Source of the DNA: Corallium rubrum
Lineage: Eukaryota; Cnidaria; Anthozoa; Scleralcyonacea; Coralliidae
Reading direction: 5' to 3'
NCBI GenBank assembly: GCA_964035015.1
Contig: CAXIUP010000261.1
Location: forward strand, 715,741-779,740
Length of the DNA stretch: 64,000 nucleotides
How positions within the stretch are numbered: position 1 is the stretch's first letter; each line of letters begins with the position of its first letter. The translations under genes and the position numbers were made by a program. The notes under the pieces were generated by a model. It was not told the DNA's origin, made no database searches, and was given only the letters and a program-made list of their open reading frames with translations. Positions 8,568-43,148 of this stretch are shown here, piece by piece.

Positions 8568-9708
8568 TTATTGTTGAGATTTGAAAAGATGTAATTTATA
8601 TTGCTTTTTAAATTGTAAGGGACTCACAGTCTTAAGTTCAATAGGAACTGTTTCCCAAATTTTCGAACAAGAAAATTTGAATGTACTTATGCCATAATTT
8701 GATTTGATTTTAGGCTGGTAAAAGTTTTTTTGCTTTGCATACCTGGTGTTGTAAGCATGTATCTCAGATACAGCATGTATCTCAGATACAGATATAAGAT
8801 ATTGAGAAACAATATTTGGTATACTTGATTTATTATTGATAATTTTATGACCAAACACTGCAGTCTTTAGTTTATAGATGTTGTCAAAAGTCAATACCTC
8901 CAACAAATTATAGTAAGGCATTGCATTTTCTCTGTTGTGTGCAAAGAAGATGCCACGCACACATTTGTTTTGCTTGGTTTTGATTTTTGTTAGTTTACTT
9001 TTATAGGTGTTACCCCAACTCATTATACCATAATGTAAATAAGGATATATTAATGCATAGTAGAGTTGTTTTAGCATTTGAAATTTCAGGTAATACCTAA
9101 GTTTTTTAATTATTCCAAGGTTTTTTGAAATTTTGTTGTTTATATGATGAATTTGTGGCTCCCAATTAAGATTTTTGTCAATATAGATACCAAGATATTT
9201 AATGTAATTTTTCTGTTCAATGTTGGGTAGCGTAATTTGGAATCTTTTTTTATGCGATGATGAAATAAGCATGTAATGTGTTTTTTTAAAGTTAACAGAC
9301 AATTTATTAGCAGCACAATAATTCAACAAATGCCCAAATTCCTCATTCATAACTTTCTCAAGCTCTCTTGGATTGTTGCAAGAGTAAAAAATATTGGTGT
9401 CATCAGCAAAAATTCTGAAAGAGACCTTGCTAGAACAATTCGGAAGATCATTGATATATAAAAGAAATAGCAAGGGGCCGAGTGTGGAACCTTGGGGAAC
9501 TCCACATTTTATGTTAAGCATTTCAGACTTTACATCTTCAATCTGAACATATTGCATTCTGTCATGAAGATAATTGCAAAACCAATTAAATGGGAGTCCA
9601 CGTATTCCATATTTATACAATTTACTAAGTAGAATATCATGATTAACAGTATCAAAAGCTTTTGATAGATCAAGAAATATTCCACATGTTATCTTTTTGT
9701 CATCTATA
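8568..9708 (-). pseudogene. LINE ORF2, 3' half (RT domain and C-terminus), cut by the Polinton
   Basis: This is the downstream half of the LINE polymerase whose upstream half lies at 41167-43148. The open frame starts at the insertion point and encodes GIFLDLSKAFDTVNHDILL (catalytic Asp), GVPQGSTLGPLLFLLYIND, FRIFADDTNIFY (catalytic FADD), a thumb and a C-terminal region with FSCSKIWETVPIELK. The first Met is created by the Polinton terminal sequence. A short tandem duplication near 8760-8795 repeats VSEIHA. The frame is continuous with the right-hand half once one target-site copy is removed. Bases 8380-8567 would be the 3' UTR. A CR1/Jockey-like clade is likely. Confidence 0.92.
9703..9708. 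repeat. Left target-site duplication TCTAT(A)
   Basis: TCTATA here is repeated at 41167-41172 just outside the right terminus. The last A is ambiguous: it may belong to the element (5-bp duplication with 5'-AG...CT-3' termini) or to the target (6-bp duplication, the usual Polinton length). Removing one copy restores the LINE reading frame. Confidence 0.88.
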
Positions 9709-9767
9709 GTAGTCATTGTATAAAACATATTTTATTTTATGTGTTGGGGCCTGGCACTAGTTTTTAA

Positions 9768-9823
9768 CCAATCAGATTGCAGTATTTTTTTCATTAGCCA
9801 ATCAGCATCGAGCATGTATAAAA
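9768..9823 (+). promoter_or_regulatory. Inward-facing promoter-like module in the TIR
   Basis: Two CCAATCA boxes (9768-9774 and 9798-9804) precede TATAAAA at 9817-9823 and point into the element. The same module is in the right TIR facing the other way. Eukaryotic CCAAT plus TATA spacing makes a promoter plausible, driving transcription into each arm. This is motif evidence only. Confidence 0.5.
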
Positions 9824-9904
9824 TTAGCATAATTTTGGCCGGGGGGTGTTCGAGAGTGGGTGTTGGCTCTCTTCATTAGCATATTGTTTTAGTTTAGGAG
9901 GGGT

Positions 9905-10126
9905 ATGGGGTGTTTTTTTGGGTGGGTGGGGTTGTGCATTGGGAGAGGAGGGGTTTGTGTTGTATGTATTTTATTGTGGTTTATTGTTCTGCGTGCGCCG
10001 AAGTGTGTGGTGTGTTGTTGTCTGATTTTGGTGTGCGTGTATCTTGTCATAATATATATGCGGGGAGAGAGGAGTTCGTTACGGGAGCAGCTGCACCGGA
10101 TGTACCGCTCTCGAGAGCCGAGTTGA
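9905..10126 (+). CDS. Possible small Cys-rich hydrophobic ORF in the TIR
   Basis: An ATG 82 bases after the TATA-like box opens a 73-codon frame, beginning MGCFFGWVGLCIGRGG and continuing with a hydrophobic stretch, VCVVCILLWFIVL. The mirror copy in the right TIR keeps the first 31 codons with one change (I to V) and then diverges. The frame may simply come from the conserved TIR sequence. No known family is recognised. Confidence 0.25.
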   Translation: MGCFFGWVGLCIGRGGVCVVCILLWFIVLRAPKCVVCCCLILVCVYLVIIYMRGERSSLREQLHRMYRSREPS

Positions 10127-15701: not shown

Positions 15702-16688
15702 ATGTCGAAACGTGATCATACAGGTCGTGTGATAACGAAGAGCGTTGAAGCTGATGCAACCTTATCTTTAAAAATGCTGCTTTGCATAATACCTGAAATG
15801 AGACGTTTTTCGTCACGTTATATGGGGATGTTGTATTGGATAGCCGGTGTGTTAGATTATTACGAGGGGAGTTATATATTGGGTATTAAGAGAAGACCAT
15901 TGTGTGAAAAAGAAGAAGAAACGGTCAGCATAGATTATTCATTCCGCAGTACAACATTCCTGTACAAGACCATAGCAACGGAGGGCAACCGTGATATGAA
16001 TTATGTTATTTTAGAGAACGGATGGGAATATTTACTTCCGTATGTGAAAAAGAAGAAGAATACCGGCTGGTGTGTGTATCGAACATTGAGAGGCAGTGTG
16101 ATGTTGAAGCGAACACGTAATTGCAACGTTGATTTTTATTCTAAATATTCTTATTTTATGCAAATTTCCTACGATGATGAAAAAGAACACGCGTGTGCGT
16201 ATCAGCATAAATTATACTGTGTAAATAGTGTGACGGGTGAAGTACTCTACCCGTTAAATAACTCACTACGACAATTATTAATCGCTATTAATTTAAAACA
16301 TGGTGAAAGAGTTTTCATGACAGCGTATTACTTGTTTACTATCGCACCCGAGATTTTTGTGAGTGTGTTTTCATACATTGCTTGTTTTGATGTCGATTTG
16401 TTATATTCGCTTGTGTTAATTTTTCTATTTTATTGCGAAAACCATAATCCTTTGGGCGTGTTATTGGCTAAAAAAAACCCAGAGTATTCAATTGAGGCAA
16501 TAGCAACGTTTATTGAGAAAGAATTAGAATGGGAACTGGATAGAATTGAAGGTGATGCGGATAATTATTTTTATTGTAATTATATGTATAGAACACGTGT
16601 AATTTGCATGTATAAAAATTGTAAGAAAATGTGTGCGAATCATTTAGATAAATTAAAAGATTCTAAATACGTTTTTAAAAAAAAATGA
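15702..16688 (+). CDS. LLYW-family protein 1, 328 aa
   Basis: This large intact gene is a paralogue of the one at 34132-35355. Shared blocks are FSSRYMGMLYWIAGVLDYYE against FPNREIGLLYWLMGLADIYE near the N-terminus, CENHNPLG against CEKHNPRG, and MYKNCKKMCANHLD against CFKNCEEKNSAHVD near the C-terminus. The last block (C-x3-N-C...H) may bind zinc. A hydrophobic stretch before the CENHNP block (FDVDLLYSLVLIFLFY) could be buried or membrane-associated. It overlaps the next gene by ATGA. No outside family is recognised. Confidence 0.75.
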   Translation: MSKRDHTGRVITKSVEADATLSLKMLLCIIPEMRRFSSRYMGMLYWIAGVLDYYEGSYILGIKRRPLCEKEEETVSIDYSFRSTTFLYKTIATEGNRDMNYVILENGWEYLLPYVKKKKNTGWCVYRTLRGSVMLKRTRNCNVDFYSKYSYFMQISYDDEKEHACAYQHKLYCVNSVTGEVLYPLNNSLRQLLIAINLKHGERVFMTAYYLFTIAPEIFVSVFSYIACFDVDLLYSLVLIFLFYCENHNPLGVLLAKKNPEYSIEAIATFIEKELEWELDRIEGDADNYFYCNYMYRTRVICMYKNCKKMCANHLDKLKDSKYVFKKK

Positions 16689-18302: not shown

Positions 18303-19208
18303 ATGGTGAAAAAAAAGAAGACTGGTGGAACTGTATTTAGCGAGGATTTTATTAAAAAAGCATCGCGACTTCTAAAAGGAGAAACGTTAGAATCGGGACA
18401 ATTAGAAAAATATAAACAACATAAACTGGCTAGAAAAAAATATAGACGATTAAATATACATGTGGGTGAAAAGAATGATCAGTGGGAAATTGATTTAGCA
18501 GAAAATAAAGATTTGGCGAGATTTAATCGTCAATTTCGTTATTGGCTTGTGTGTATTGATGTATATTCGCGTTACGTGTGGGTGGAATTTTTAAAGAAAA
18601 AAACGGCGAAAAATACAGCGGTAAAAATGGAAAAAATTTTAAAAAAAGATGGTGTTCCTAAAAAAATTCAGTGCGACGAAGGATCAGAATTTCAAATAAT
18701 TCGTAAAACTTTGAATAAAAAATACAATTTTGAAGTTTTTCATACGTTCAATCGAGAAATTAAAGCCTCTCACGTCGAAAGAGTAATTCAAACTTTAAAA
18801 ACAATGGTTCGTCGTGTTTTAACGTTGACGGGCGGTTTTGATTATTACTCTTATTTTCGCATAATTCTCGAAAGATACAATAATTCACCGCATAAAAGTT
18901 TGGGTGGTGCCACGCCCCACGAGCTTTATCGTGAGGATAAAAAACAAAAAAAATTTTTAAATATATTATTACGTAAGATGATATCACCCGTCACTTTTAC
19001 TAAAAACGTGTTGAAAGAAGGAACGCTTGTGCGAATAGCGCGTGGAAAAACGAATATTTTTGAGAAAAGCAGTCTACGGCGTTGGACGAACGAGAAATTT
19101 AAAATCAGAAAAGTATTTGTAACGGACCCCGTGACGTATGAATTGGTGGATTTAAACGACGAAAAAATTACGGGGATATTTTATCGCGAAGAATTACAAC
19201 AATTATGA
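18303..19208 (+). CDS. int: Polinton integrase (retroviral DDE type)
   Basis: The enzyme inserts element DNA into the host genome and makes the short target duplication. The 301-residue frame is intact. The RNase H fold carries WEIDLAE (Asp64), IQCDEGSEF (Asp125) and ASHVERVIQTLK (Glu159), giving D-D-33-E spacing. A lysine-rich N-terminus precedes it. The C-terminal VTYELVDLNDEKITGIFYRE segment is the SH3/chromo-like tail typical of Polinton integrases. The stop overlaps the penton ATG by ATGA (19205-19208). Its integrity fits the well-preserved insertion footprint. Confidence 0.95.
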   Translation: MVKKKKTGGTVFSEDFIKKASRLLKGETLESGQLEKYKQHKLARKKYRRLNIHVGEKNDQWEIDLAENKDLARFNRQFRYWLVCIDVYSRYVWVEFLKKKTAKNTAVKMEKILKKDGVPKKIQCDEGSEFQIIRKTLNKKYNFEVFHTFNREIKASHVERVIQTLKTMVRRVLTLTGGFDYYSYFRIILERYNNSPHKSLGGATPHELYREDKKQKKFLNILLRKMISPVTFTKNVLKEGTLVRIARGKTNIFEKSSLRRWTNEKFKIRKVFVTDPVTYELVDLNDEKITGIFYREELQQL

Positions 19209-23895: not shown

Positions 23896-24119
23896 GAAAA
23901 CACTACACTACAAAACATTACGAGAGCGGCGATACAGCGGGCATTGCAGCAAGTTCAGGAACAACAAGTTCAACAGACGACGATCCTCTCAATTACGATT
24001 TCTATGTACCAGGAGAAAAAAGAAAAAAAAAACGTATAGCGACGCCGATGATAAACCACAGAGTTTTAGTTACTCACGTCAAAAAGCTCGTGGTAGAAAA
24101 TATTCTTTTTAAAAAATGA
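23862..24119 (+). CDS. Hypothetical protein, 85 aa (possibly the C-terminus of the preceding gene)
   Basis: From the ATG at 23862 the frame encodes NTVLRKHYTTKHYESGDTAG, a Ser/Thr-rich stretch, YDFYVPGEKRKKKRI and a helical end. The stop overlaps the protease ATG by ATGA (24116-24119). It may be a separate coupled ORF or the end of the 23374 gene after an A-run frame change. No domain is recognised. Confidence 0.45.
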   Translation: MPASIIKNTVLRKHYTTKHYESGDTAGIAASSGTTSSTDDDPLNYDFYVPGEKRKKKRIATPMINHRVLVTHVKKLVVENILFKK

Positions 24120-24711
24120 CGGGTAAAAAAACAAATAAATTCATATGTTTTTTAAAACGTTTTCTGTACACTAACGAAATTGAAAAGCTAGCGTCTGAAA
24201 ATGTTATATTAAAAAAATTTTTTGGGGGGGCTTTTCCGGCGGACGTGTTTCCTAAAAATATAACAGAAAATTGTTGCTGGATATGGAATACGGACGAAAG
24301 TGATTCTGGCAGGCGCCATTGGATAGCTATTTGGTTGAGTGGTGATAAAATGTATTTTTTCGATAGTTTTGCAAAGTCAGTCGATTTTTACCGTCGCGAT
24401 TATTGGTTGAAATATGCGAAAAAACAACAAAAGAAATTTATTTATGTGCAGAAACAACCATTACAATAAAAAATAACGTATACTTGTGGTTATTGGTCCT
24501 TATTATATTTATATGAAAAAAGCAAAAACATAGAAAATGCAGGTAAATGGTGGAAATGGAAAAACAGTAAAATCAAAATAAAAAACGAAATGAATTTAAA
24601 AAAAAAATAGATTTTAGATTTGGTAATATTATCGATAAATTAATATTTAAAAAATGTAAAAGTAAAGAAGAAAATCAACAATGTTGTCGTAATTTTAATG
24701 TCTTTTATTAA
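24116..24711 (+). pseudogene. Adenovirus-type cysteine protease (Ulp1-like), broken
   Basis: This family matures virion precursors in Polintons and adenoviruses. The intact 117 codons contain the catalytic His68 in RRHWIAIW and the acidic partner Asp83 in FFDSFAKSVD. An in-frame TAA at 24467-24469 interrupts the gene six codons before the expected catalytic Cys (TYTCGYWSLLYLYE, same frame). A second break follows at the A run before 24608, after which another frame is open to TAA 24709-24711. A product ending at the first stop would lack the nucleophile and be inactive. Confidence 0.85.
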
Positions 24712-25513: not shown

Positions 25514-26152
25514 TCACACATTATAAATTAATGTATTTTCACCGGGAAATATATTAGTGCGTACGCGTGTATTTTCATAGCTATTTGCCGCGTTATCAAA
25601 TAATAAATAACCATACGGGTCTTTATTTACATCATCTAAAATAGCTGTGAATACTTCACGATTAATTTGTTTATTGTCGGCAATAGTATACATATTTCTA
25701 ACATCGGCTAAATTTTTAAACATTAAATGATATTGACTATTGACACGTGAGTTCCGTAATTTACCATCACCGTACATCAAATTTTGACACACAAAAATAA
25801 CACTAATATTTTTATGGTGTGCGTCACGACATGCAAAGTTATTCAAATTAATTAAATTTTTTTTCGAAGAAGCAGCAACAGTCATAAGATCGTCTAAAAC
25901 TACTAAAGTATTATCGTTTAAACTAGTTTGCAAATCAGTTGCTTTTGGTATCCCTTTAGTACACTCGATAAATTCAATTTCCAGATTTTTTTCTTTCCCC
26001 ACGCGTTCGATCTCACTGTACAGCGGTTGATAAGATGTGTATAGAAACAAAACCTTATCGATTAAAGGTGTGATCATGACCTCGATGGATTGTAATAATT
26101 TGTAAAGCCAAAATGTTTTGCCACACTGCGACGGTCCGCATAATGTTAACAT
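25514..26152 (-). CDS. DNA-packaging ATPase (FtsK/HerA type)
   Basis: This enzyme pumps the genome into capsids in Polintons and related viruses. Walker A is CGPSQCGKT (residues 5-13), Walker B is TLVVLDDLM (Asp87-Asp88), and a sensor-like motif ISVIFVCQNL follows. The first Met leaves only five residues before Walker A. The frame is open about 15 codons further upstream without an ATG, to a stop near 26198, so the true start may be lost or non-AUG. At 212 residues it is otherwise full-looking and intact. It lies behind the polymerase gene, whose coding region ends about 38 bases upstream of this Met. Confidence 0.9.
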   Translation of the reverse strand: MLTLCGPSQCGKTFWLYKLLQSIEVMITPLIDKVLFLYTSYQPLYSEIERVGKEKNLEIEFIECTKGIPKATDLQTSLNDNTLVVLDDLMTVAASSKKNLINLNNFACRDAHHKNISVIFVCQNLMYGDGKLRNSRVNSQYHLMFKNLADVRNMYTIADNKQINREVFTAILDDVNKDPYGYLLFDNAANSYENTRVRTNIFPGENTLIYNV

Positions 26153-26189: not shown

Positions 26190-29100
26190 TTAACTCTCTA
26201 AAAAACCATAAGGAACGGTGTAAAAATTATTTTTAGCTACACGTTTGTTAAAAGTGAAAGTAAATATTTTCTCTTCATCTGCGGTAAAAATATGGTTGAT
26301 TTTATCGCGTGTTATTTTATCTGTATATTTAATTTTAATCAGTTGCGATTTATCTTCAACACAATTTTTTAATGATTCAAAATTTAACTGTTTTTTTATT
26401 TTCTCATTGGTTAAACTAAAACCTTTTATGTGCACAATTTCGTTATCTAAATTTGTTCGGTACGAATACGATTTCGGTCCTGTCGCGCAAAATTGAGTGA
26501 TCCATTCGTTTTTTTTAACTCATTTGTTAATTCGCCCAGATAATTCCCCCTCTTAACTGCTACATCGCTAGTTTTACTCGTGTAAATTACGGAGTCGGTG
26601 TCAAAATACAAAACTCGCGCGCCTAAGCTATCGATCAACTCGTACAATTTCAAGCGCGCATAGGCTGTGACAAAACTTGCGATAACTACGTTCCCCGTTT
26701 TTAACGGTGTAGTAACAACATCGGTTTTTTGATAAGTAACGCGTAAGGTGTTTTCGTTAACAAAATCAGTTGAGGTTAAGTCTACATTCGGATCGTTCGC
26801 TAACCTTAGTAACTCGTGGTAATCGGATAAAAAATCGACTTTTGTATTATTATAGTTTTGCGCAAATTTACCCCAAAGCGAATTTAATATATTTTTTGCT
26901 GTGGCTCGTAAGCCGGGGTTATATTCTATCTTGTCTTTATCTAATAAAATACCCTCGTTTTTATAATAATCAGCGATATATTTATCAACTTCGGAATCGA
27001 TTAAATTTTTATCGTCGTCATAACACTCGTCTGGAAAACCGCTCGCCTCCTGTTTTATTTTTAAAAAACAATTTACAAACTCTTGAAAAATTCTTTCTTG
27101 ACGCGGGTAATGGTAAATTTCATAAGTTTTAATAATGCGGTAGCCCTTTTCAATAGCTTTATTTACTTCTACGCTAGACCATGTACCCGAAATACAGCGC
27201 TCATCTTCGTTATGTGTGCACGCCGTTAATTGAACCGTACTAGCGCACGCGTGACACAAAGGAAATATTAATCTATCGTTAAGACGTACGGGTAAAACGG
27301 GGAAATACAAGTTTTGCGGTGGCAGAATACGGCATTTTACTAAGCCGAATACTTCAGATATTTTCACACCCTCACATTCTTCTTTAATGTATATCGTCGG
27401 ATGACCAACAGGGTATTTATTAGCTTTTTGAACGTAAGGGTATAAAGATGTGAAATCATCGTAATTAATTTTTTCATTCACGTTTGTGTTTTTAAACAAG
27501 CAAACAGGTGATGTTCGCCCACCGTAAAGCGCATCTCTTATTTCTAACGGGAGATAAGCGGTGTAAAAAATCCTTTTTTCAACTATGCTTTTTCTTGTAA
27601 GTTTACATTCTTCTCGAAAATCACACTCCCATTTTTCTACTACTTTATAGCCGGCTTTTTCCATACGGTGTGTAAATTTTTTTGTACCTGCGTAAAGATA
27701 TGTAAATTTTGTATTATTTAAACGATTCGTTTCGTAGGGGAAATAACATTTCGGACACCCGTGAAAATAGCACCCGTGAAATTGGTAGACGGTATTGGCA
27801 TAAAAACCGTCAACATAACGCCCCAAAATTTGCTTTTCACCATTTCGCGAACATTTGTACTCTAACATACCGTTTGCTTCTTCTGCGTTTATTTTATCTA
27901 GCCATATTAGCGCCACAACACTTTGATTAGTGTACCCTCTATACCCTGAAGCAGGTATGATTCCAACACATTTGTCTCTTAAAAAATTCATTCGAAATAC
28001 TTTTCACGTCAAACTCGCTATGGTGATACATTCCGTGTCGTAAAAAGGGGTGACGCCCGAAGTTTCCCGCATAAACATAGCAAATTTAATGCACCCTTTT
28101 CGTAAAATATCGACGTCCGAGCTACAGTAATAATACATTTCTTCTTCAAATACATATTGTTTTTCTTTTTTTTTCAAATACCATTCTTCAAATTCAACTT
28201 TTGTTTTCTTTTCCATATTTTCAAGATCGAAATAATCACGCGCAACAACACACCCTACATAGGATAAATCTGTAAATTTATACGGATGAAAACCCTTCGT
28301 TAATTCTTCAAGACCCATTGTTTTTGGAATTTTTGATAATTTCATATGTAAAAATGAATAGCTATCGAAAAAAGTTATTTTTTTATCAGGGATTTTCAAC
28401 ATCATTATTTTACAACCATTCATTATGGTGTCGGGATAAATTTTTTTTTCATTAATGAGATATTGAAAAATAAAAATTGTGTCAAATCGTCCGCCATTAT
28501 GCGCTAGCCAAACAGAATTTTCTTGTGCTAATAGAAACTCGCATAATTCCTCTACAGTATTATCTCCTTGAAAAACAAATTCCCGTTTTCCACAGCAAGG
28601 TTGAATATTATCGCTCGCAATGTAATTTTTACTTTTTTTAAACTCGATATTTTCACATTTACGGCACACTTTTTGCACGACGCAATAATACGGTACCATT
28701 AATTTATTCTTATCGACGCGCGTTTCAAAATAAAAAAAAAATAAAGTAGGTTGTACAACTTCTTTGTTTTTTTTCACGGTCTTCATATAACAATAATGCG
28801 ATTTATCCTTATAGTCGTTACAGTGTTAACAAAACTGTTTGTTACAGTCATGCTTTTTCACATTCTTCGCAGAAAAAAAACGAAATCGGGGAACAATCTT
28901 ACCGCAAGTTTGGCAATAAAATAAGTAACTACACGGTGTTAATTTCCCGTAATTACCCTGTTGAGGGGGAAAAACACGATTTGTTAAATGAGCTAAAAAA
29001 CATTTATTATTATAAAATAAAATATTACAATTAGAACACTCAATTTTGCAATCAATGATAAGACGACATTTAGATTGTTTATAGCAACGTTGGCATGTTA

Positions 29101-30220
29101 AGTGGCTATAACATATATGCGTATCTTTACGTTCGTGATTTAAGTAATAATTCATGCATTTAACGCAAAATTTGCTTGGTGGTAACTTCGAAAACTTAAC
29201 CATACTTAAAACGACATCGTAATGTTTATTATTTAACCACAAACAAACAATATCGTTGGTTAACTTAATTAAATTACCTTCTTTATCGCACCGCGAATTA
29301 TACACTATGTCGTTATCAAATTGATCCGAATATACTACTAAGTCAACACCCTGCTGTTTAAGAAAATTCTGATAAACACTATCGTAATGTTTTGATCCCA
29401 CACAACATCCTTCAACTATACCGCATTTTTCATAAATCCTACGAACCTCATCAATAGTGTACAGTGTATCGACAGCTGTGTGTGGGGATCTTTCCATCTG
29501 CACATACCGCGTGTCTTTTTTTAACCACGATAACCCCACTAATAAACTAACTACGAAACAACAATTTTTAATGATTTTGTTTAACCCATCGCACACAGTG
29601 TAAAAAACACCCATACGTTGATCGCGACCGTATTTTTCCACATTTTTACCTCCGCCACCCTCATCATCATCGCCACCCCCAGCACCTAATTGCCGATATA
29701 TTTTTTTTTTACCCAATTGTTTATTTTTTTTTTTATTTTTACTATACGTGTGTGGAAAAGTTTGAATTACAACACTTGTTTCCCACCCATCAGCGATCAA
29801 CGTGCGGTTGCTTTGCATCATTTTTTCAAAAATATTTAGTAAGAAGTTGACGTCAAAATCTTTAAGTCGGAGAACAGCGGTTGAAAAATAAGATTTTGGT
29901 GCGTGTGAAAAAATAAAACGCACATAATCATTCTCTGAACTTGTAGAGGCTCGAGCTACATTCAGTAAGTACGTAAACACTACACGTAACGATTGAATAA
30001 AGGCGATAAAATTCATGCCCGATTTTCGCGCAATCGATACGTGTAATGTTTTTTGAGAAAATTTAAATTTTTCATTATGGGATGACTCGATAATATTAGT
30101 TTTAAAGTCTTCTTCAACCCTTTTTCCATCATCTTTTCCTTTTTTTTTGCGTTTTTCTAATAACTCCCTTATTTCACTCACATCTTCATTTGTAAACACA
30201 TAGGGGTTTTTTTCAGCCAT
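26190..30220 (-). pseudogene. polB: Protein-primed DNA polymerase B, three breaks
   Basis: One long gene of about 1,340 codons replicates the element. The N-terminal 464 codons (30220-28826) have a Gly/Asp-rich insert and Cys/His clusters (KFCVKCMNYYLNHERKDTHI, CQTCGKIVPRF). A TAA at 28826-28828 interrupts the frame. The next part (to 28004) has the 3'-5' exonuclease: HNGGRFDTIF (Exo II) and YYYCSSDVDIL (Exo III). An in-frame TGA at 28004-28006 follows. The polymerase part has YDDFTSLYP (motif A), KNILNSLWGKF (motif B) and YFDTDSV (motif C). The frame changes near 26515 at an A8 run, and the C-terminus ends at 26190. Exo I reads FYFE where an Asp is expected before x-Glu. It cannot be functional as written. 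Confidence 0.93.
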
Positions 30221-30818: not shown

Positions 30819-31385
30819 ATGGTTAAACAAGGGGTAAATAGAGGAGGTCGAACAATGAGTTTAATTTCACAAAATGTACGAGCTGTTTTACAATGTCGAA
30901 GCTTCACGTTAAAAAGAAAACGATGTCGAAAAAGAACAGCACACACGCATAAATGTTGGATACATCTAGCAAAAGAAGATAACTTACGTGTTAAAAAATC
31001 ACGGATTCCAAACGCTGGCAAAGGGTTGTACGCTTGGAAAAAACCTTTTAGACGCAGCACTAACGTAGCCGCGTACACAGGCCAAAGAACCACAGTAAAA
31101 CAAATGGATCGAAAATATGGCCGTAAAACAATTGCACAATATAGCTTATGTGATGGTCCCCGCCACTGCGTCGATGCTTATAAATCGACCGATGGGGCGG
31201 CCCGATTTTGTAACGATGCAAAAGGATCGCGGTATAAAAATAACGCTTGTTTTACAGGAACAACAAAATACAATAATCATTTTAAATTACATGCAACCGC
31301 AGCTATAAAACCCCATCAGGAAATTTTTGCCGACTACGACGATGAGTACTGGCCACGTGGATACTTTAAAAAAACACGAAAATGA
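30819..31385 (+). CDS. SET-domain protein (putative lysine methyltransferase)
   Basis: This 188-residue protein has a Cys-rich lead (RCRKRTAHTHKCWIHLAKED) followed by a compact SET domain. RIPNAGKGLYAWKKPF fits the first SAM-binding segment. Then come VAAYTGQ, ARFCNDAKGSRYKNNACF (the knot-forming region) and EIFADYDDEYW with the C-terminal Tyr. The family methylates lysines, often on histones. Large DNA viruses carry short SET proteins thought to act on host chromatin; such a role here is inference. It is intact, follows the 30463 gene by 17 bases and overlaps the next ATG by ATGA. Confidence 0.82.
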   Translation: MVKQGVNRGGRTMSLISQNVRAVLQCRSFTLKRKRCRKRTAHTHKCWIHLAKEDNLRVKKSRIPNAGKGLYAWKKPFRRSTNVAAYTGQRTTVKQMDRKYGRKTIAQYSLCDGPRHCVDAYKSTDGAARFCNDAKGSRYKNNACFTGTTKYNNHFKLHATAAIKPHQEIFADYDDEYWPRGYFKKTRK

Positions 31386-31733: not shown

Positions 31734-32375
31734 TTAAAAAAAATTATCGGAATAAATTACATGTGTTTCATACATTACGTAGGGTAAATTTCCTATACCG
31801 TATTTTACACCTTTTTTTGTTTTAATGTCTTGTGTAAATTCAATATGTTGAAGTAAAATTAAATCGTCGTCTCGGGATAAATCATATTTTAAATTGTCAA
31901 TTTTAACTGAACTTGAAAACATAGGTAAACTAAAATACGCGTTTTTTGAATTTCGAGGAATTATTTGATTCGATGATATAAAGTTCTCAACATAAGGAGT
32001 AGTTACTTTCAACAAATCTTTATTTACTTGAAGTATCGTGAAGAAAATATTCCCATTTTCTTGATCCACCACATTTTTAGAAATTTTTATTTCGATAGAA
32101 TCAATAATTTTTCTTTTTTCCCACTCATCTACATCGGGGGTTTGCGTTAAAGAAAATGGATAGCCATTTTGATGACGCGCTCCTGAATTTATAGATGTGA
32201 AAGTAATGGCTCTCGTTTTCTCATTAACATAAGGATCGATAATAGCACCTTGACGCGCACTTTGTTCTCGAAAATGATATTTGCCATCGGCACGTTTCAC
32301 GGGTATTTTCCCACCATCGTCTGCTGAATGAAACCAAAAACGCGGATTTTTTATAATAATTTTTTTATCAGCCAT
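31734..32375 (-). CDS. Hypothetical protein, 213 aa
   Basis: This intact frame starts at 32375 with MADKKIIIKNPRFWFHSADD. It looks beta-rich, with SINSGARHQNGYPFSLTQTP and DNLKYDLSRDDDLILLQHIE. No domain is recognised. The composition would suit a capsid-associated or jelly-roll-like protein, to be tested by structure prediction. Its ATG overlaps the end of the exonuclease-like gene by 8 bases, so the two are probably coupled. Confidence 0.6.
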   Translation of the reverse strand: MADKKIIIKNPRFWFHSADDGGKIPVKRADGKYHFREQSARQGAIIDPYVNEKTRAITFTSINSGARHQNGYPFSLTQTPDVDEWEKRKIIDSIEIKISKNVVDQENGNIFFTILQVNKDLLKVTTPYVENFISSNQIIPRNSKNAYFSLPMFSSSVKIDNLKYDLSRDDDLILLQHIEFTQDIKTKKGVKYGIGNLPYVMYETHVIYSDNFF

Positions 32376-33000
32376 AAGAATACAAAATTTTATCTCTTTT
32401 TTTTGTATTGTGTGTTAACTCGGCAACCTGTGCTGCGAAAAGCCTAACCTCGTATAAAGAACAATGAACATTATGTCTCACATGTTCCCTGCAAATCTTT
32501 ATATCTTTAAGAAAATATTTAGGTATTTTTTCATATTTTTCCACACCGAAATGTTCTAAATTTACACATTCCACACACATTAACGCGCATAAATCAGATT
32601 CAATTTTACCCCCTTTATAGCCAAATAAAATCTCAGGTTTACCGCTAAATTTTTTTTTAAATTCCTCTAAAAATTCCGCCTGATTGTAATATCGCGGATT
32701 TTTTCGATAATTATATAACTTTAGACCGTGAATCTGAAATTGATGATGAATGGTGCGTTTATCTTGTTTACTCATTTTCCCGTAATCTTGAGCATCTTCG
32801 ATAAAACAATGGAACATTTTATATCTCCCACTATCCATATAAATCAGCGAAACCTCGCGAAAATAAACCAGCGAATTAATGCGATAACATTCACAATCCA
32901 TAATATGCGTAACATTTTTTAATATTTCTTCTCCTTTTACACCAAATAAATCCACATGATTTACAACTTTGTTAAACTCGCTATCGTAACGCGAATACAT
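32368..33000 (-). CDS. DEDD exonuclease-like protein, 210 aa
   Basis: The frame is intact from the ATG at 33000. THIMDCECYRINSLVYFREV fits the Asp-x-Glu motif I of DEDD nucleases followed by a beta strand. LFGYKGGKIESDLCALM has a candidate third acidic residue, and NVHCSLYEVRLFAAQV lies where motif III should be. The family removes nucleotides from DNA or RNA 3' ends. The final Asp is not clear, so activity is uncertain. It could serve repair, replication or RNA decay. Confidence 0.55.
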   Translation of the reverse strand: MYSRYDSEFNKVVNHVDLFGVKGEEILKNVTHIMDCECYRINSLVYFREVSLIYMDSGRYKMFHCFIEDAQDYGKMSKQDKRTIHHQFQIHGLKLYNYRKNPRYYNQAEFLEEFKKKFSGKPEILFGYKGGKIESDLCALMCVECVNLEHFGVEKYEKIPKYFLKDIKICREHVRHNVHCSLYEVRLFAAQVAELTHNTKKRDKILYSYG

Positions 33001-33024
33001 CTTACAACAGAATGAGTAAAAAAA

Positions 33025-33501
33025 TTAAAAATTCGTCAATTTATCTTTAAAGTAATCATAATTATCTTCACGTAGTTTACGCATGTGCCTGTCGCATTTT
33101 ATCATTTTTAATATGTTACTGACAAGCGTTATATCATACGAGGGCATGCTCTGTTTAACATCAGTAAGAAAACTATCACGCAGTTCAGTACGGTTCAATT
33201 CTTTCAAGGCATCTTCGAGAAACAGTTCAACTTTTTCTTCCTGTGTGATGATACATCCACACCGATCAAAGTAAATCTTGTTGATATTCTTGCTTATCAT
33301 CTCCAAAATACACCGTTCAAACGTCGCGATCTCATGACTCTGTGGCTCTGCTGCTGCTACTGCTGCTGGTGATGATGATGGCGATAATGTCGATGATGAA
33401 GGAGCATATTCTTCTTCTTCTAATTTCCTTTCCTTTTTTTTATTCTCCTGCTCAATTACCGCTTTATCAAAATCTGCTGTACATATGAACACACGTTTCA
33501 T
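33025..33501 (-). CDS. Hypothetical protein, 158 aa
   Basis: I choose the ATG at 33501 because it overlaps the stop of the upstream zinc-ribbon gene as ATGA; the frame extends further upstream only inside that gene. The order is MKRVFICTADFDKAV, a Glu/Lys and Ser/Pro/Ala-rich linker, then a helical domain (ATFERCILEMISKNINKIYF) ending KDKLTNF. No domain is recognised. Confidence 0.55.
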   Translation of the reverse strand: MKRVFICTADFDKAVIEQENKKKERKLEEEEYAPSSSTLSPSSSPAAVAAAEPQSHEIATFERCILEMISKNINKIYFDRCGCIITQEEKVELFLEDALKELNRTELRDSFLTDVKQSMPSYDITLVSNILKMIKCDRHMRKLREDNYDYFKDKLTNF

Positions 33502-33701
33502 GGTTGTTTGAATCGCAAACCCCAACGCTGTTTCCTCTTTATACAAACGCATCGAGAACACATGACACGTCTTCCAATTACTATCGGAGAAATTCTTCTG
33601 CATAAATCACAATACATTATATTCACATCACATTTTCTACACGTAAAATAACACCGTTCAAACCACACTATTTGTTGACAACATATTTTACAATTTTCCA
33701 T
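33498..33701 (-). CDS. Zinc-binding Cys-rich protein 1, 67 aa
   Basis: Four Cys pairs occur in MENCKICCQQI, CYFTCRKCDV, YCDLCRR and MCSRCVC. It is a paralogue of the 66-residue protein at 40322. The two share the QQI, Y-x-TCR-x-CDV and CD-x-CRR positions. This spacing suits a RING- or ribbon-like zinc fold with two metal sites. The role is unknown; viral proteins of this kind often act in protein binding or ubiquitin transfer, which is only a possibility. Both ends overlap neighbours, so it sits in a tight operon-like run. Confidence 0.7.
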   Translation of the reverse strand: MENCKICCQQIVWFERCYFTCRKCDVNIMYCDLCRRISPIVIGRRVMCSRCVCIKRKQRWGLRFKQP

Positions 33702-34131: not shown

Positions 34132-35355
34132 ATGAATAAACGTTCAGCAGGAGAAATAAATGAATGCAAAAAAAGTAAACGTGTACGTTGAGAAGATAAA
34201 AAAATAGCAGAGGGAGAAGAAACACCCGTTGTTGGTTTATTAAAAATGGTACTGATGTACACAAGTCATTTTCGCTTTTTCCCAAACCGAGAAATCGGGT
34301 TGCTGTACTGGTTGATGGGTTTGGCGGATATATACGAAGGGGGTTTCATAAGACTGATTCCGCTACATAAAAAGCGCGAGACGGCTACACTCTGGAATAT
34401 TCCGCATCAATATTGGTTATACTGTGGTGGGAATGTACTTCCCGGCGATGGAAAACTACGTCACGTCATTGCCAGAAATGAAGATCTTTATATGACAATC
34501 CCATATATGTATAAAAGAGTTGAAAACTGGAGTATCAAGAATCAGGAACGTCATTTAATATTAGCAAAAGACAAACGATTTTTTTATTCATTATTTCCTA
34601 AAAGAGGGTGTCTAATATATAATTCTTATTATTTCCCTATAATACCCGGTGACTTTGAACCATGGCATGCTGAAATTTACCATCGTGTAGGTCTTCTAAA
34701 TGACAATCGTATGCATGTACCTTACTCTTTCTGGATATATCGAAATTGTTGGAACAAGAAAACGTGCACCTCATTACACAAAGTATTCGCATATATATAT
34801 AAAAAGTACGGTGATGAAGGTGTGAGTATAGCAGTCTATATGTATTGCAAATCACCAAATTTTTTCCACCAAGCGCTCAAATGCAAAGACGGTGAGATAA
34901 GTGTGACTTTTTTGTTAAATATAGCCTGTTGCTTTATTTCTTTTTGCGAAAAACACAATCCACGTGGTATGATTCAGAAACAAACACATACTTACAACAT
35001 TCATGAAATTATTTCAGAGAACAAAAATCTTGAAATATGTTGTTTTAAAAATTGTGAGGAAAAAAATTCAGCACATGTAGACACGCGTGAATTTGAAATG
35101 TTTGACTATGACAGTGTGTCAAAAACATCAATAAAAAAAATAAAACAAAACTTAACACTTCTTTCAGAACCAATTATTACGTTAACTAATCTTGAACCAG
35201 GAGAATATATTTTCACCCAGCAAACAAACATTCACGCAATAATTGTCGAATACGTTAACAACCACAACGGCGAGTTAACAAGTTTTATTCGTAGTTTCTT
35301 TACATGTGTATATGCTACCGATAATTTTATTGCTTATTTAAAAAAATTACTCTAA
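34132..35355 (+). pseudogene. LLYW-family protein 2, with an in-frame TGA near the start
   Basis: This is a paralogue of the 15702 gene. The ATG at 34132 opens MNKRSAGEINECKKSKRVR and meets TGA at 34189-34191. The same frame then stays open for 387 codons to 35355. The conserved FPNREIGLLYWLMGLADIYE block, CEKHNPRG and a Cys/His cluster (CFKNCEEKNSAHVD) are present. A C-terminal extension with LEPGEYIFTQQTNIHAIIVE is not in the first paralogue. Translation from Met 34246 or 34255 could still give a long protein. Function unknown. Confidence 0.65.
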
Positions 35356-35940
35356 TATATCTTTCAAATTAAACAACATGTGCAAATGTGATTTTCTATC
35401 TTCGAAAACACGTTGACCTTTTTTACATTGCAATATTTCTAGTTGCTCACATAACATTTTATGTTGTTCAAAAGACTTTACCATACACGATAAATTATTT
35501 CTCAATATAGCGTGTAAAGCTTTTCCCACACGACCATTGCCATCACCAAACGGGTGTATATATTCAAATATATAATATATTCGTGTGGGTATCAAATTCA
35601 ACACGTCATCCTCAACTCTAATTCTACGATAATGTTCATCTAATAATCCCATGTATAATTCTATATAGTCAGGCGCTGGTGGAATGTGATTACCGCAATA
35701 TCTGTAATTTATTGAATATTCACCCTCATTATAATTTTTCATGCTACGTTTATGTAAATAAACGCATATTTCACTTATTTGCATTTGTTCTCGATCTGAT
35801 TTTTTTATCCGGTAAAAATCAGTTAAACCCCGTGCATATTTTGCGCACTTGTAAAAAAACAAGTTATCCTCTTCTTCTTCTTCCATGAGTACAACATAGT
35901 AGGAAAATATTTTGATTCTTAAATGATGTTCCAAATTCAT
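35347..35940 (-). CDS. Fic-domain protein (putative AMP transferase)
   Basis: Fic enzymes attach AMP or other phosphate-containing groups to Ser, Thr or Tyr of target proteins. The catalytic loop EYIHPFGDGNGRVGKALHAI is complete for the HxFx(D/E)GNGRxx(K/R) motif, with His129 counted from the chosen start. A flap-like NEGEYSINYR segment precedes it. I start at the ATG at 35940 because it overlaps the upstream stop as ATGA. The protein has 197 residues and is intact. No inhibitory helix motif is obvious. Fic proteins are common in bacterial toxins and rare in animals; in a Polinton a role against host signalling or in toxin-like control is conceivable but unproven. Confidence 0.9.
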   Translation of the reverse strand: MNLEHHLRIKIFSYYVVLMEEEEEDNLFFYKCAKYARGLTDFYRIKKSDREQMQISEICVYLHKRSMKNYNEGEYSINYRYCGNHIPPAPDYIELYMGLLDEHYRRIRVEDDVLNLIPTRIYYIFEYIHPFGDGNGRVGKALHAILRNNLSCMVKSFEQHKMLCEQLEILQCKKGQRVFEDRKSHLHMLFNLKDILE

Positions 35941-36278
35941 TTCTTCGTTATCCCCCAATAATCGGTGTCAAATTTCACGTCGATGCAATGTTTGAGATGT
36001 GAACACGTGAATCTTGTAATATCTCTAATCAAAAATTCTTGGTTTTTTTCTTCACCTTCAAAAAATACGATTAGCAGCGAGTAATACGCGATAATATCCC
36101 CGATAGTATAACGTTCAATTTTGTTATATATATCCCGAAGTTGGTCCTTCAGAATATTAGCGGATATATTTTTCAAAAGATTTCTTTGTCGCGAAATGTT
36201 TTCTTTAATTTTTTTCTCAAATACGTCGTCCCGCGTAATAACACCGCTTTTATTCACCTCCTCTATTATAAATTCCAT
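35937..36278 (-). CDS. Hypothetical protein, 113 aa, coupled to Fic
   Basis: The ATG at 36278 gives MEFIIEEVNKSGVITRDDVF, a helical middle (ERYTIGDIIAYYSLLIVFFE) and a C-terminal FDTDYWGITKK. The stop overlaps the Fic ATG by ATGA, so the pair is probably co-translated. Bacterial Fic toxins often have a small inhibitor encoded upstream; whether this is an equivalent partner is a hypothesis without motif support. Confidence 0.55.
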   Translation of the reverse strand: MEFIIEEVNKSGVITRDDVFEKKIKENISRQRNLLKNISANILKDQLRDIYNKIERYTIGDIIAYYSLLIVFFEGEEKNQEFLIRDITRFTCSHLKHCIDVKFDTDYWGITKK

Positions 36279-36339
36279 TTTAAAATAACACAATGAAAAA
36301 ACAAAACAGCGTTTTATACCTCATTTTTTTTAAAAAATC

Positions 36340-36500: not shown

Positions 36501-37352
36501 TTAAATTTTACTTTTCTTGGTGGTTTTATCCGGTAATACATATCTCGCCGCTATCATTTCTAATGTCGCTAGCTTATCTTTTATCTTAACTAATTTTTTT
36601 ATTTTTTTTTGTTTTTCATTATAAACGTATTTTAGTTCTTTAAATTTATTCTCTGCTGTTACAACTACATCTCTATCGTACCTATTTAATATAGCATACG
36701 TGTCAATGAGTATATCTTTTTTTTTAAAACAAAGCGTTCGTCGATAGTTTCTTTTATCTACGTGTTCTTCTAATCTATTAAATTCCAGTTCATTGTATGC
36801 TTGTTTTAAAATATCTATGCTTTTACCCTGTGGTCGAACCGCCGCGGTTTGAGTCGGTCGAGATTCAAGAATTGGTGTTGGGAAGATATAATCTCCTAGA
36901 TTGAGAATATCGTTGCAATCGCCAGCATCAGCAATACAAGCGGTGGCGCTGTTACCAACAACTTCTACTTTTTCTTCTCCCCCTACATTCTGCGTAAACA
37001 CATTTATTTCGCTCTCGCCATCGCCACCAGCATCACCAGAGTCGTCGTCGGAAAGAGGTGATAAATTCGGAAAGCTGGGTTCGGTCAACTGCGAATAAAA
37101 ACCCCCCATCACCATACTAGGACGAGCGTCGTTACACTTTTGTCGTTCATTCTCTATTGCGACACTCCGCTCTTTCTCTAACCTCGCAACCTGTTGTTTT
37201 CGTTTTGCATCTGCTGCTGCTGCTGCTGCTGTTACTCGCTCTTGCTCTTCCCGCTGTTCTCTCCCCAACCGTTCATTATTCAGCCTCATCACTTCATTAA
37301 TGTCGATCTTATTCTCGCTGATAAATTTATATAAAACAGATAGTTGATCCAT
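36501..37352 (-). CDS. Hypothetical coiled-coil protein, 283 aa
   Basis: The ATG at 37352 opens MDQLSVLYKFISENKIDINE. A charged coiled coil follows (ERLGREQREEQERV, an Ala run, then VARLEKERSVAIENERQKC). A disordered acidic middle has NLSPLSDDDSGDAGGDGESE. A basic helical C-terminus ends TTKKSKI. The layout resembles a scaffold or nucleic-acid-binding protein. No family is recognised. It heads the minus-strand run towards Fic. Confidence 0.6.
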   Translation of the reverse strand: MDQLSVLYKFISENKIDINEVMRLNNERLGREQREEQERVTAAAAAADAKRKQQVARLEKERSVAIENERQKCNDARPSMVMGGFYSQLTEPSFPNLSPLSDDDSGDAGGDGESEINVFTQNVGGEEKVEVVGNSATACIADAGDCNDILNLGDYIFPTPILESRPTQTAAVRPQGKSIDILKQAYNELEFNRLEEHVDKRNYRRTLCFKKKDILIDTYAILNRYDRDVVVTAENKFKELKYVYNEKQKKIKKLVKIKDKLATLEMIAARYVLPDKTTKKSKI

Positions 37353-40744: not shown

Positions 40745-41166
40745 AAAAAAATATTACAAATAATCATACGTATAAGATTTCACAATCACTTCAACTCGGC
40801 TATCGAGAGCGGTACATCCGGTGCAGCTGCTCCCGTAACAAACTCTTCTCGAAGAAACATACAAGCAGACAACATTCGCACGCAGAACAATAAACCACAA
40901 TAAAATACATACAACACAAACCCCTCCTCTCCCAACGCACAACCCCACCCACCCAAAAAAACACCCCATACCCCTCCTAAACTAAAACAATATGCTAATG
41001 AAGAGAGCCAACACCCACTCTCGAACACCCCCCGGCCAAAATTATGCTAATTTTATACATGCTCGATGCTGATTGGCTAATGAAAAAAATACTGCAATCT
41101 GATTGGTTAAAAACTAGTGCCAGGCCCCAACACATAAAGTAAAATATGTTTTATACAATGACTACT
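40745..41166 (-). repeat. Polinton right terminal inverted repeat
   Basis: This is the reverse complement of the left TIR. The tip 40877-41166 is nearly identical; the inner block 40745-40842 matches with a few changes. The centre is about 38 bases shorter than on the left. It carries the same CCAAT/TATA-like module facing inward and the same short Cys-rich ORF start near 40969. Confidence 0.96.
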
Positions 41167-41172
41167 TCTATA
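41167..41172. repeat. Right target-site duplication TCTAT(A)
   Basis: This matches 9703-9708. It marks the LINE sequence duplicated on Polinton insertion. Confidence 0.88.
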
Positions 41173-43148
41173 TTCATTTTAAGTTGGTCAGTTAGCTCAA
41201 GAATTGCTAGTTCAGTTGAATAATTTTTTCAAAATCCAAATTGATAATCTGATAATATATTATGTTTTTCAAGAAATCCAATTAATTGATCATAAACCAG
41301 CCTTTCCAGAACTTTTGCGAATGGTGATAATGTTGCTATTGGTCTATAATTCCCAGGGTCAGTTATTTTGTCATTTTTGTATATTGGAGTAACTCTAGAT
41401 ACTTGAATATGTCAGGTATTATGCCTGTAGTAATAGACTGATTGTAAACGTGAGTGAGGGGTATTGAAAGGGGAAACCTCGCCAATTTAATTAACTTATT
41501 AGGGATATCAATCGAGGCTTTACTTTCATTTAAACCAGATAAGAGAGTGCAAACTTGACTACTTGTAATTGTTGACAAAAAGAAGCTAGAGCTTGGACAT
41601 TTGTTGATAAATTGTGTTGGACTTGTAGTACTTTGGTTAATTGTTTTGGACAAATTAGGGCCTATATTGACAAAATAATGATTAAATTGATCTGCTATAG
41701 TTTGCTTGTCAGTATAAGTTTTGTTATTATATATAAGTTTTGTGGGATGTGTCTGACTTTTTGTCTTCCTCTTAATTAAGGTGCCAATCAGTCCCCATGT
41801 AGATTTTAAATTGTCTTTGTTTACTTCAAATTTTTTTTTGTAATATTTTGACTTACATTGCTTCTTTAATTGATTAAGAGTATTGCAATGTTTTTTATAC
41901 TGCTGTATTTTCAGGATATTACCACTATGAAAATGCTTACGGTACATCTTTTGTTTAATTTTAATTGATCTTAAAATCCCATCAGTTATCCATGGTTTAT
42001 GAACTACTTGCTTTATTTTGCTGTTTGATACTTGTTTTAAAGGGGCATGTCTATTGACAACAGCTTTAAGCTTATGAATAAATTTGTGGTTTTTTTTATG
42101 TATATCATCATCACATTCATTGAACATATCTGTCCAATTGATTGAATAAATATCATTCAAGTACTGAAGTTTATTAAAATGACTATAATCTCTATAATAT
42201 CTTTTTACCTTTTGTTTCTTAACTGGTATATCAACAACACAAAAAATAGGTAAATGATCTGAGATGTCCATGTTTGCAATTCCAGGTATAATTCGCTGTG
42301 TAGAAATGTTTGTATATATATGGTCAATCAAAGTGGAACTATGATCAGTTAGCCTTGTTGGTTTAGTAATAAGTGGAATGAAATTGTTTGCATATAACAT
42401 ATCTAAATAATTTTCTGTTTTAGAATGTGTGTTGTATTTTAAAAAATCAATATTAATATCTCCTAATATTAAAACTTGGTATTTTGATTGGTTTAATCTC
42501 TGAATGAACTGCTGAAGTTCATCAGTAAATTCATCGAGATTTGCTGTAGGGTGTCTATACACACATCCAACCATTATATTATTTTTCTTATAACCTGGGT
42601 CAATTTCCACCCAACATGTTTCTACCAGATCAATATTTAACTTAAGATCAGGACGAGGAATTATATTCATTTGGTTGGATACATATATAGCTGCACCCCC
42701 AGCCATTGTTTTTGAGTCAGAATGATAAAGTGTATAATTAGGTAGGTCAATATTGACAATAGTATTTTCATTAATTCTAGTCTCTGTTAGTGCAATTATA
42801 CTAGGCTTACTGTCAAAAACAGTATAATAAATCTTGTAGTAGTTCAATGTTTTTTGGTAAACTTCGGATGTTACAGTGAAATAATGAAAGAGAATTACTT
42901 GAACACTGATTAAATACATTATTCATTTTTGAAATTGAAAAATATTAGGAGTTAGGGACGTTAAGCATCAAGTCAGAGTCACACTCGTCAAATTTATCAG
43001 GGTTAGGTAGAATATGAAATAAGTCTAAATCAGATAAGGCATCACAGGATGGATTTCCAGTTACCAGGTTAAATTCTCTATTGTCTAATGAAGAATACGG
43101 GAATGTAAAACTTACTTCATGGACATTGGTATCACTGCAACTCATCAT
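41167..43148 (-). pseudogene. LINE ORF2, 5' half (endonuclease and start of RT), cut by the Polinton
   Basis: The main frame (42919-41363) holds an apurinic-type endonuclease: IIALTETRINENTIVNIDLP, VGCVYRHPTANL, VLILGDINIDFLKY and MDISDHLPIFCVVD. A linker leads to the RT N-terminus. The frame changes near 42845 in a T run and near 41395, and a TGA replaces an expected residue near 41252. Beyond the TCTAT(A) site the frame continues exactly into the RT half at 9708. A further frame at 43148-42945 is probably the ORF2 N-terminal leader. The copy was already or is now defective. Confidence 0.9.

What the first reader, a model, noticed from the sequence alone, without database searches (positions are those of the whole stretch)
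35347..36278. Fic-domain enzyme with a coupled partner in a Polinton
A complete Fic loop (HPFGDGNGRVGK) lies in an intact ORF whose start overlaps the stop of a 113-residue gene. Fic AMP transferases are unexpected in Polintons to my knowledge. The pair recalls bacterial toxin-plus-regulator units and could alter host signalling or act as an addiction module.
Basis: partly seen in the sequence, partly recalled or inferred. Interest (0 to 1): 0.85.

Follow-up and report, generated by a model that had tools for sequence, protein, structure and literature searches.

The report
Fic enzyme gene pair in Polintons
A family of virus-like mobile elements in an animal genome carries, in about a hundred places, a conserved protein-modifying (Fic) enzyme gene or its remains, mostly beside a small partner gene, and the DNA layout suggests that both proteins are made from one message.

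Summary
A 197-aa Fic ORF (35347-35940, -) starts inside the stop of a 113-aa ORF (ATGA overlap), in a 31-kb Polinton. It is no stray capture: the host genome holds about 101 loci of this Fic, fragments included, 59 with a complete frame. At least 87 of 101 have the partner just upstream; 67 of 83 polymerase loci have a Fic within 16 kb. Both genes show purifying selection. The Fic groups with about 40 unnamed database proteins, far from host FICD and bacterial Fic. AlphaFold gives a Fic fold; catalytic His and Asp are kept, but the second motif Arg is Lys. A conserved Glu lies near the self-inhibition position; the partner lacks the Fic-antitoxin motif. New here: the partner gene has no ATG in any frame (6 expected; the only such ORF of 27) and a TATA box 40 nt before its start. 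In 30 ATGA-type copies there are 42 ATGs against 195 expected. This fits one mRNA with a very short leader, the Fic being reached by leaky scanning; the partner's strong start context argues against. Activity, target and partner function are untested. I found no report of Fic in Polintons.

The parts
35347..35940 (-). Fic-domain protein, 197 aa
35521..35556 (-). catalytic loop HPFGDGNGRVGK; Lys140 stands where EfFIC has its second motif Arg
   Evidence: H129 in 16 of 16 own and 39 of 40 database rows with a residue there; K140 in 15 of 16 and 39 of 39
35881..35883 (-). codon of Glu20, candidate for the self-inhibition glutamate
   Evidence: E in 15 of 15 own and 31 of 31 database rows with a residue there; offset to FICD 234 and SoFic 73 inferred from the first aligned residues; the CdFic offset disagrees by three
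35937..36278 (-). partner, 113 aa, no known family
   Evidence: 98 matches in own genome; no Pfam, NCBIfam or PADLOC family over a cut-off; no internal ATG in any frame; all-alpha by a weak single-sequence model
35937..35940 (-). ATGA overlap of partner stop and Fic start
   Evidence: sequence; same arrangement in 30 of 44 copies examined
36313..36318 (-). TATAAA box 40 nt before the partner ATG
   Evidence: TATAWA at -33 to -45 in 33 of 44 copies
9708..9997 (+). left terminal inverted repeat, begins AGTAGT
40877..41166 (-). right terminal inverted repeat, ends ACTACT
9703..9707 (.). direct repeat TCTAT outside the left end (other copy 41167-41171)
18303..19208 (+). retrovirus-type integrase (rve)
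   Evidence: PF00665 E 2.1e-9
24116..24469 (+). possible adenovirus-type protease
   Evidence: PF00770 E 0.03, below cut-off
25514..26152 (-). A32-type packaging ATPase
   Evidence: PF04665 E 1.2e-8
26447..28786 (-). type-B DNA polymerase, in this copy split over frames 28004-28786 and 26447-27991 (28826-30220 may be its N-terminal part, inferred)
   Evidence: PF03175 E 4.8e-34 and 4.2e-18; open frames up to 1368 aa around the match in other copies
31734..33603 (-). three genes that keep their place beside the Fic pair in related copies
34246..35355 (+). convergent neighbour gene, 369 aa, overlaps the Fic 3' end by 9 nt
36501..37352 (-). syntenic upstream neighbour gene

Best explanation
This is a native accessory module of one Polinton lineage: a self-regulated Fic transferase, most likely an AMP transferase or an AMPylation/deAMPylation enzyme acting on host proteins, with a small accessory protein. 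SHOWN: Fic domain and predicted fold, conserved His/Asp/Asn loop, purifying selection on both genes, fixed place beside the partner and polymerase, a distinct Fic clade, the ATG-free partner gene and its TATA box. INFERRED: one TATA-driven mRNA starts about 10 nt before the partner ATG; many ribosomes miss that cap-near AUG and, as no other AUG lies between, start next at the Fic AUG, giving both proteins in a set ratio. Glu20 facing Lys140 would hold the enzyme partly off. The partner would bind the Fic as adaptor, stabiliser or regulator, but not by donating an inhibitory glutamate. Substrate and benefit to the element are guesses.
For: Fic family and fold. Copies, pairing and synteny. Selection. 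Own clade, 100/100 on the branch to bacterial and host Fic. Leaky scanning: 0 ATGs in the window copy against about 6 expected; 42 against 195 in 30 ATGA copies; the only ATG-free ORF of 27 tested and the only one with TATAWA near -40 (ORF 36501 has it at -59 and -57); no TATAWA within 150 nt upstream of the Fic in the 19 clade-A copies checked. Contrast: four clade-B copies, partner 29-35% identical and Fic set apart, have 45 ATGs against 31 expected. PMC3542737 (passages) says that start recognition falls with leaders under 30 nt, above all under 12 nt. PMC11291117 (abstract) reports start-codon depletion before ORF 2 and fits it to leaky scanning.
Against: No transcript, protein or assay data. 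The partner AUG has a strong context (AAAATGG), whereas leaky scanning usually goes with a weak one; the case rests on an unmapped short leader. In 5 of the 21 copies (L007, L008, L010, L014, L015) one more ATG lies between TATA box and partner start. ATG counts come from related copies and are not independent; with synonymous-codon shuffles the out-of-frame depletion in the window alone is weak (0 against 1.6, p 0.09), and several copies show none. Copies below about 61% partner identity, and L020, lack the TATA box; copies of both sorts have up to 3-4 ATGs. Lys for the second motif Arg could change the chemistry. The Glu20 equivalence is not settled: the CdFic offset is three off, the window row has a gap in the motif-Glu column of A3, and S/T is absent. 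14 of 101 Fic loci show no partner, mostly fragments or clade B.
Confidence: 0.55

Rival explanations
1. Bacterial-style toxin-antitoxin or addiction module: the partner neutralises a toxic Fic, and loss of the element harms the cell.
For: Small gene directly upstream and overlapping, as in class I Fic systems (arrangement recalled); partner changes faster than the Fic, as antitoxins often do (recalled); PADLOC SoFic and PDC-S04 models match the Fic (E 2.2e-13 and 1.3e-8).
Against: Partner lacks a conserved [S/T]xxxE[G/N] motif and matches no antitoxin family; the Fic carries its own candidate Glu.
Confidence: 0.15
2. The two ORFs are one gene: a frameshift, splice or programmed -1 shift makes a partner-Fic fusion.
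For: Two copies, L021 and L023, have one open frame across most of both; in 43 of the 47 loci where the aligned parts lie under 10 nt apart, the Fic is in the same relative frame.
Against: 30 of 44 copies keep separate frames with exact ATGA, also where the partner C-terminus differs in length; a fusion does not explain the absence of ATGs; the open frame of both fused copies does not reach the partner N-terminus.
Confidence: 0.12
3. Termination-reinitiation at the ATGA, as part of an element-wide operon-like layout.
For: 5 of 17 close same-strand ORF junctions of the element overlap by exactly 4 nt and 3 by 8 nt.
Against: Reinitiation does not need an ATG-free upstream ORF (reasoning), and the upstream ORFs of the four other 4-nt junctions have 0.51 (integrase), 1.04, 1.41 and 1.48 of the expected ATGs. 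Reinitiation after 113 codons is unusual without special elements (recalled).
Confidence: 0.15
4. Recent capture of a host or bacterial Fic exon with no role in the element.
For: Fic domains exist in the host: FICD (L035) and two others at C13.
Against: About 101 loci, fixed synteny in 17 of 20 loci, dN/dS near 0.2, own clade on a long branch apart from host FICD and bacteria.
Confidence: 0.03

Closest known systems
Class II Fic proteins with an N-terminal inhibitory helix: human FICD/HYPE, Shewanella SoFic
   Different: Shorter; no S/T four places before the Glu, and after it E or D, N in 2 rows, never G; Lys instead of the second Arg, the residue that pairs with the Glu in EfFIC as Arg122 (passage of PMC6408439); no room for TPR or winged-helix parts in 197 aa.
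Class I Fic toxin-antitoxin pairs (VbhT/VbhA, EcFicT/EcFicA)
   Different: The partner lacks the inhibitory motif and matches no antitoxin family; the Fic brings its own first helix.
Fic or Fic-fold proteins of other DNA viruses: Oryctes rhinoceros nudivirus B7SV90, Fusobacterium phage Fnu1, WSSV Wsv406 (the last by fold only)
   Same: Predicted Fic folds in viruses, two of them viruses of arthropods (Foldseek probability 1.00, E 2e-3 to 9e-3).
   Different: Matches are weak (14-16% identity, none at E 0.001 or below); I did not compare their sequences or neighbours.
Polintons / Mavericks / adintoviruses
   Same: Integrase, type-B polymerase, A32 ATPase, terminal repeats with AGTAGT...ACTACT ends.
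   Different: 31 kb, and a Fic pair as a stable resident, which my paper searches did not find reported.

Membership tests
Polinton / Maverick | retrovirus-type integrase | tested here: met
   PF00665 E 2.1e-9
Polinton / Maverick | type-B DNA polymerase | tested here: met
   PF03175; frame interrupted in this copy, long open frames elsewhere
Polinton / Maverick | A32-type ATPase | tested here: met
   PF04665 E 1.2e-8
Polinton / Maverick | adenovirus-type protease | tested here: inconclusive
   PF00770 E 0.03, under cut-off
Polinton / Maverick | terminal inverted repeats with AGTAGT/ACTACT ends (commonest motif of vertebrate Mavericks, PMC8097293, passage) | tested here: met
Polinton / Maverick | 6-bp target-site duplication (length recalled) | tested here: inconclusive
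   5-bp TCTAT repeat only
Polinton / Maverick | double jelly-roll capsid and penton proteins | not tested
Fic/DOC (PF02661) | domain over curated cut-off | tested here: met
   44.2 bits against 24
Fic/DOC (PF02661) | core motif HPFx[D/E]GN[G/K]R (PMC2686095, passage) | tested here: met
   HPFGDGNGR
Fic/DOC (PF02661) | second Arg, three residues after the motif Arg, usual in AMPylators (recalled; Arg122 in EfFIC) | tested here: not met
   Lys in 15 of 16 own and 39 of 39 database rows
Fic/DOC (PF02661) | AMP transfer activity | not testable with these tools
   needs protein
Class II Fic | Glu of the N-terminal inhibitory helix | tested here: inconclusive
   E20 conserved and in place by the FICD and SoFic offsets, not by the CdFic offset; A3 pairs M19 with the Ile before the motif Glu but leaves a gap in the window row at the Glu column
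Class II Fic | full [S/T]xxxE[G/N] motif | tested here: not met
   V, I or A in place of S/T in all rows with a residue there
Class I Fic toxin-antitoxin | antitoxin gene directly upstream | tested here: met
   position only
Class I Fic toxin-antitoxin | [S/T]xxxE[G/N] in the small partner | tested here: not met
   Glu in 8 of 16 copies, S/T in none
Addiction module (Phd-Doc type) | loss of the pair harms the cell | not testable with these tools
   -
Viral Fic of nimaviruses or nudiviruses | shared origin | tested here: inconclusive
   weak fold matches only

The most novel reading that the evidence does not exclude
Polintons carry their own lineage of self-inhibited AMP-transferring (or de-AMPylating) enzymes with a Lys in place of the second motif Arg. 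An animal mobile element sets the dose of enzyme and accessory protein by a cap-near start codon followed by an AUG desert, and uses the pair to steer host signalling or stress responses, or to exclude rival elements.
Probability: 0.35. Interest if true: 0.8.

Novelty: new variant of a known kind. Interest (0 to 1): 0.62.

Why it matters
Fic enzymes are best known from bacteria and from animal FICD (recalled). A conserved, selected Fic lineage inside a large family of animal Polintons would add a post-translational weapon or switch to virus-like elements whose biology is mostly unknown. The ATG-free partner gene turns 'are these genes co-translated?' into a simple reporter test.

Tried and rejected
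Host exon capture: rejected by copy number, synteny and the tree. Class I antitoxin motif in the partner: seen by eye at FFEG, then dropped because the Glu is not conserved. Homology of the partner to the Fic N-terminal helices: suspected by eye; profile comparison gives 0.1% probability. Tandem copies of the partner core before the Fic in L013 and L016: first read as a fusion, but the added stretch has no ATG in frame, so I read it as a duplication remnant. Fic-free sister elements: of the 16 PolB loci without a Fic within 16 kb I opened the expected Fic place of three (L085-L087). In one a Helitron-type ORF interrupts the neighbour gene 34246, in one the Polinton genes stop within ORF 32368, and in one no Polinton gene was found. 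For a fourth (C204) the contig ends before the expected place. Twelve were not examined, so a true Fic-free variant is not excluded.

Searches that gave nothing: Fic, polymerase and integrase as single queries in IMG/VR; partner profile in IMG/VR; partner in the protein database; partner profile against PDB, best E 0.33 to a papillomavirus E6, taken as chance. The Fic profile in IMG/VR gave 46 loci, no match beginning before residue 38. I did not study these loci and saw no sign that any belongs to this clade. The partner model from its single sequence is poor (pLDDT 54) and carries no fold claim. Papers: 'Polinton' with 'Fic domain', 'AMPylation' or 'Fic', 'adintovirus' with 'Fic', 'nudivirus' with 'Fic', and white spot syndrome virus with 'Fic domain' all gave 0. 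Only open-licence papers are held; the adintovirus paper I asked for is not among them.

Full report
Observation. Pfam gives Fic at E 3.6e-11. The setting is a Polinton of 31.5 kb between repeats at 9708-9997 and 40877-41166, with integrase, polymerase and ATPase. Its ends read AGTAGT and ACTACT, the commonest end motif of vertebrate Mavericks (passage of PMC8097293). The capsid genes were not tested. The polymerase of this copy is interrupted; other copies show open frames up to 1368 aa around the match. A LINE-type endonuclease ORF lies outside one end and a reverse-transcriptase ORF outside the other, on the same strand, so the element may sit inside a LINE.

Copies. The window comes from a 474-Mb genome that I take for an animal's because it holds an FICD-like gene with TPR and Fic domains (L035). 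The Fic protein finds 122 matches there, 101 loci after leaving host FICD out and merging. By my count of the rows 59 have a complete frame. The partner finds 98 matches (150 of 251 candidates scored), 91 loci. It lies 5' on the same strand within 3 kb in 87 of 101 Fic loci. That is a lower bound: at least one of the other 14 (L036) has a weaker copy. Of 83 PolB loci (only the 84 best of 899 candidates were scored), 67 have a Fic within 16 kb, 64 of them on the same strand and upstream. In 17 of the 20 loci of about 10 kb (L009-L028), the genes 31734 or 32368, 34246 and 36501 flank the pair as in the window. A Pfam Fic search of the own genome gives 91 matches: host FICD, two of another Fic type at C13, and 88 that lie at places of the Polinton Fic.

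Selection. Over pairs of 26 Fic copies the median dN/dS is 0.28, 0.17, 0.19, 0.26 and 0.27 in rising dS bins; over 21 partner copies 0.67, 0.62, 0.44, 0.29 and 0.25. Only stop-free copies entered, which biases towards constraint, and the pairs share ancestry.

Relatives. A single-sequence search found two bacterial Fic proteins. A profile of 16 copies found 687 proteins at E 0.001 (7997 candidates scored, a capped set; 120 listed). P0003-P0043 read by eye as one family with this Fic (36-45% identical, E 5e-42 to 4e-9; 40 from ENA, 1 from Logan; no names; some are fragments), followed by ordinary bacterial Fic. In a tree of 56 rows (9 own copies, 22 of those 41, 24 bacterial, host FICD) the own and database rows stand apart from the rest on a 100/100 branch. 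Long branches are flagged, and the origin of the clade is not resolved. Where these relatives live, and whether they have the partner, is unknown.

Partner and expression. The partner has no known family. Its most conserved core is GDIIAFYSL-like; the Glu of FFEG is not conserved. The gene has no ATG in any frame before the Fic start, against 6.1 expected from dinucleotide shuffles (none of 300 as low). Among 27 ORFs of the element it is the only one with none; the next lowest is the integrase at 0.51 of expected. I gave 53 loci to the test, of which 44 had both starts located: 30 with ATGA have 42 ATGs against 195 expected, and 14 without have 64 against 108. The four clade-B copies among the latter have 45 against 31. 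TATAWA lies 33-45 nt before the partner start in 33 of 44, and in 28 of the 30 ATGA copies. A transcript start some 30 nt after the TATA box (recalled rule) leaves a leader of about 10 nt, a length at which start codons are poorly used (passage of PMC3542737). Start-codon depletion before ORF 2 was found in bicistronic genes of green algae read by leaky scanning (abstract of PMC11291117). In the two clade-B copies checked, TATAWA matches lie 98-136 nt before the first aligned Fic residue (in L034 within a TA repeat), which would allow a start of their own; that is thin evidence. Against the model: the partner AUG context is strong, five of 21 copies have one more ATG between TATA box and start, the copies are related, and synonymous shuffles give a weaker result.

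Verdict. A real, selected Fic lineage resident in Polintons, with a conserved partner and a layout that predicts leaky scanning. Function of enzyme and partner is open. Fic proteins named as such already exist in other viruses (nudivirus and phage entries), so this is a new variant of a known kind.

Noticed in passing
18303-19208/19205, 22955-23377/23374, 23862-24119/24116, 30819-31385/31382 and 8-nt overlaps at 20157, 25514, 32368: Several ORF junctions of the element overlap by exactly 4 nt (ATGA) or 8 nt, as in bacterial operons. How the downstream genes are translated is unexplained; their upstream ORFs are not ATG-free.
   Followed up: partly
15702-16688 and 34246-35355: Two distantly related genes of about 330-370 aa, one in each half of the element (the first finds copies of the second at 22-30% identity in most loci); no known family.
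   Followed up: no
30819-31385: SET-domain gene (PF00856 E 4.6e-5), found in 16 of the 20 larger loci: a possible methyltransferase of the Polinton.
   Followed up: partly
own genome C13:2269700-2271300 and 2274500-2276100 (L188, L189): Two neighbouring Fic genes of another type (motif LHPF[SA]DGNGRLCRLL), open frames of 341 and 334 aa, distinct from FICD and from the Polinton Fic.
   Followed up: partly
8568-9728 and 41363-42919: Reverse-transcriptase and endonuclease ORFs of LINE type outside the two ends, on the same strand, as if the Polinton had inserted into a LINE.
   Followed up: partly
L013 4443-4614, L016 4345-4525, L017 4468-4554: A tandem remnant of the partner core lies between partner and Fic in one subfamily.
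   Followed up: partly
18303-19208: The integrase ORF is also poor in ATGs (8 against 15.6, p 0.004) and precedes an ATGA start.
   Followed up: no
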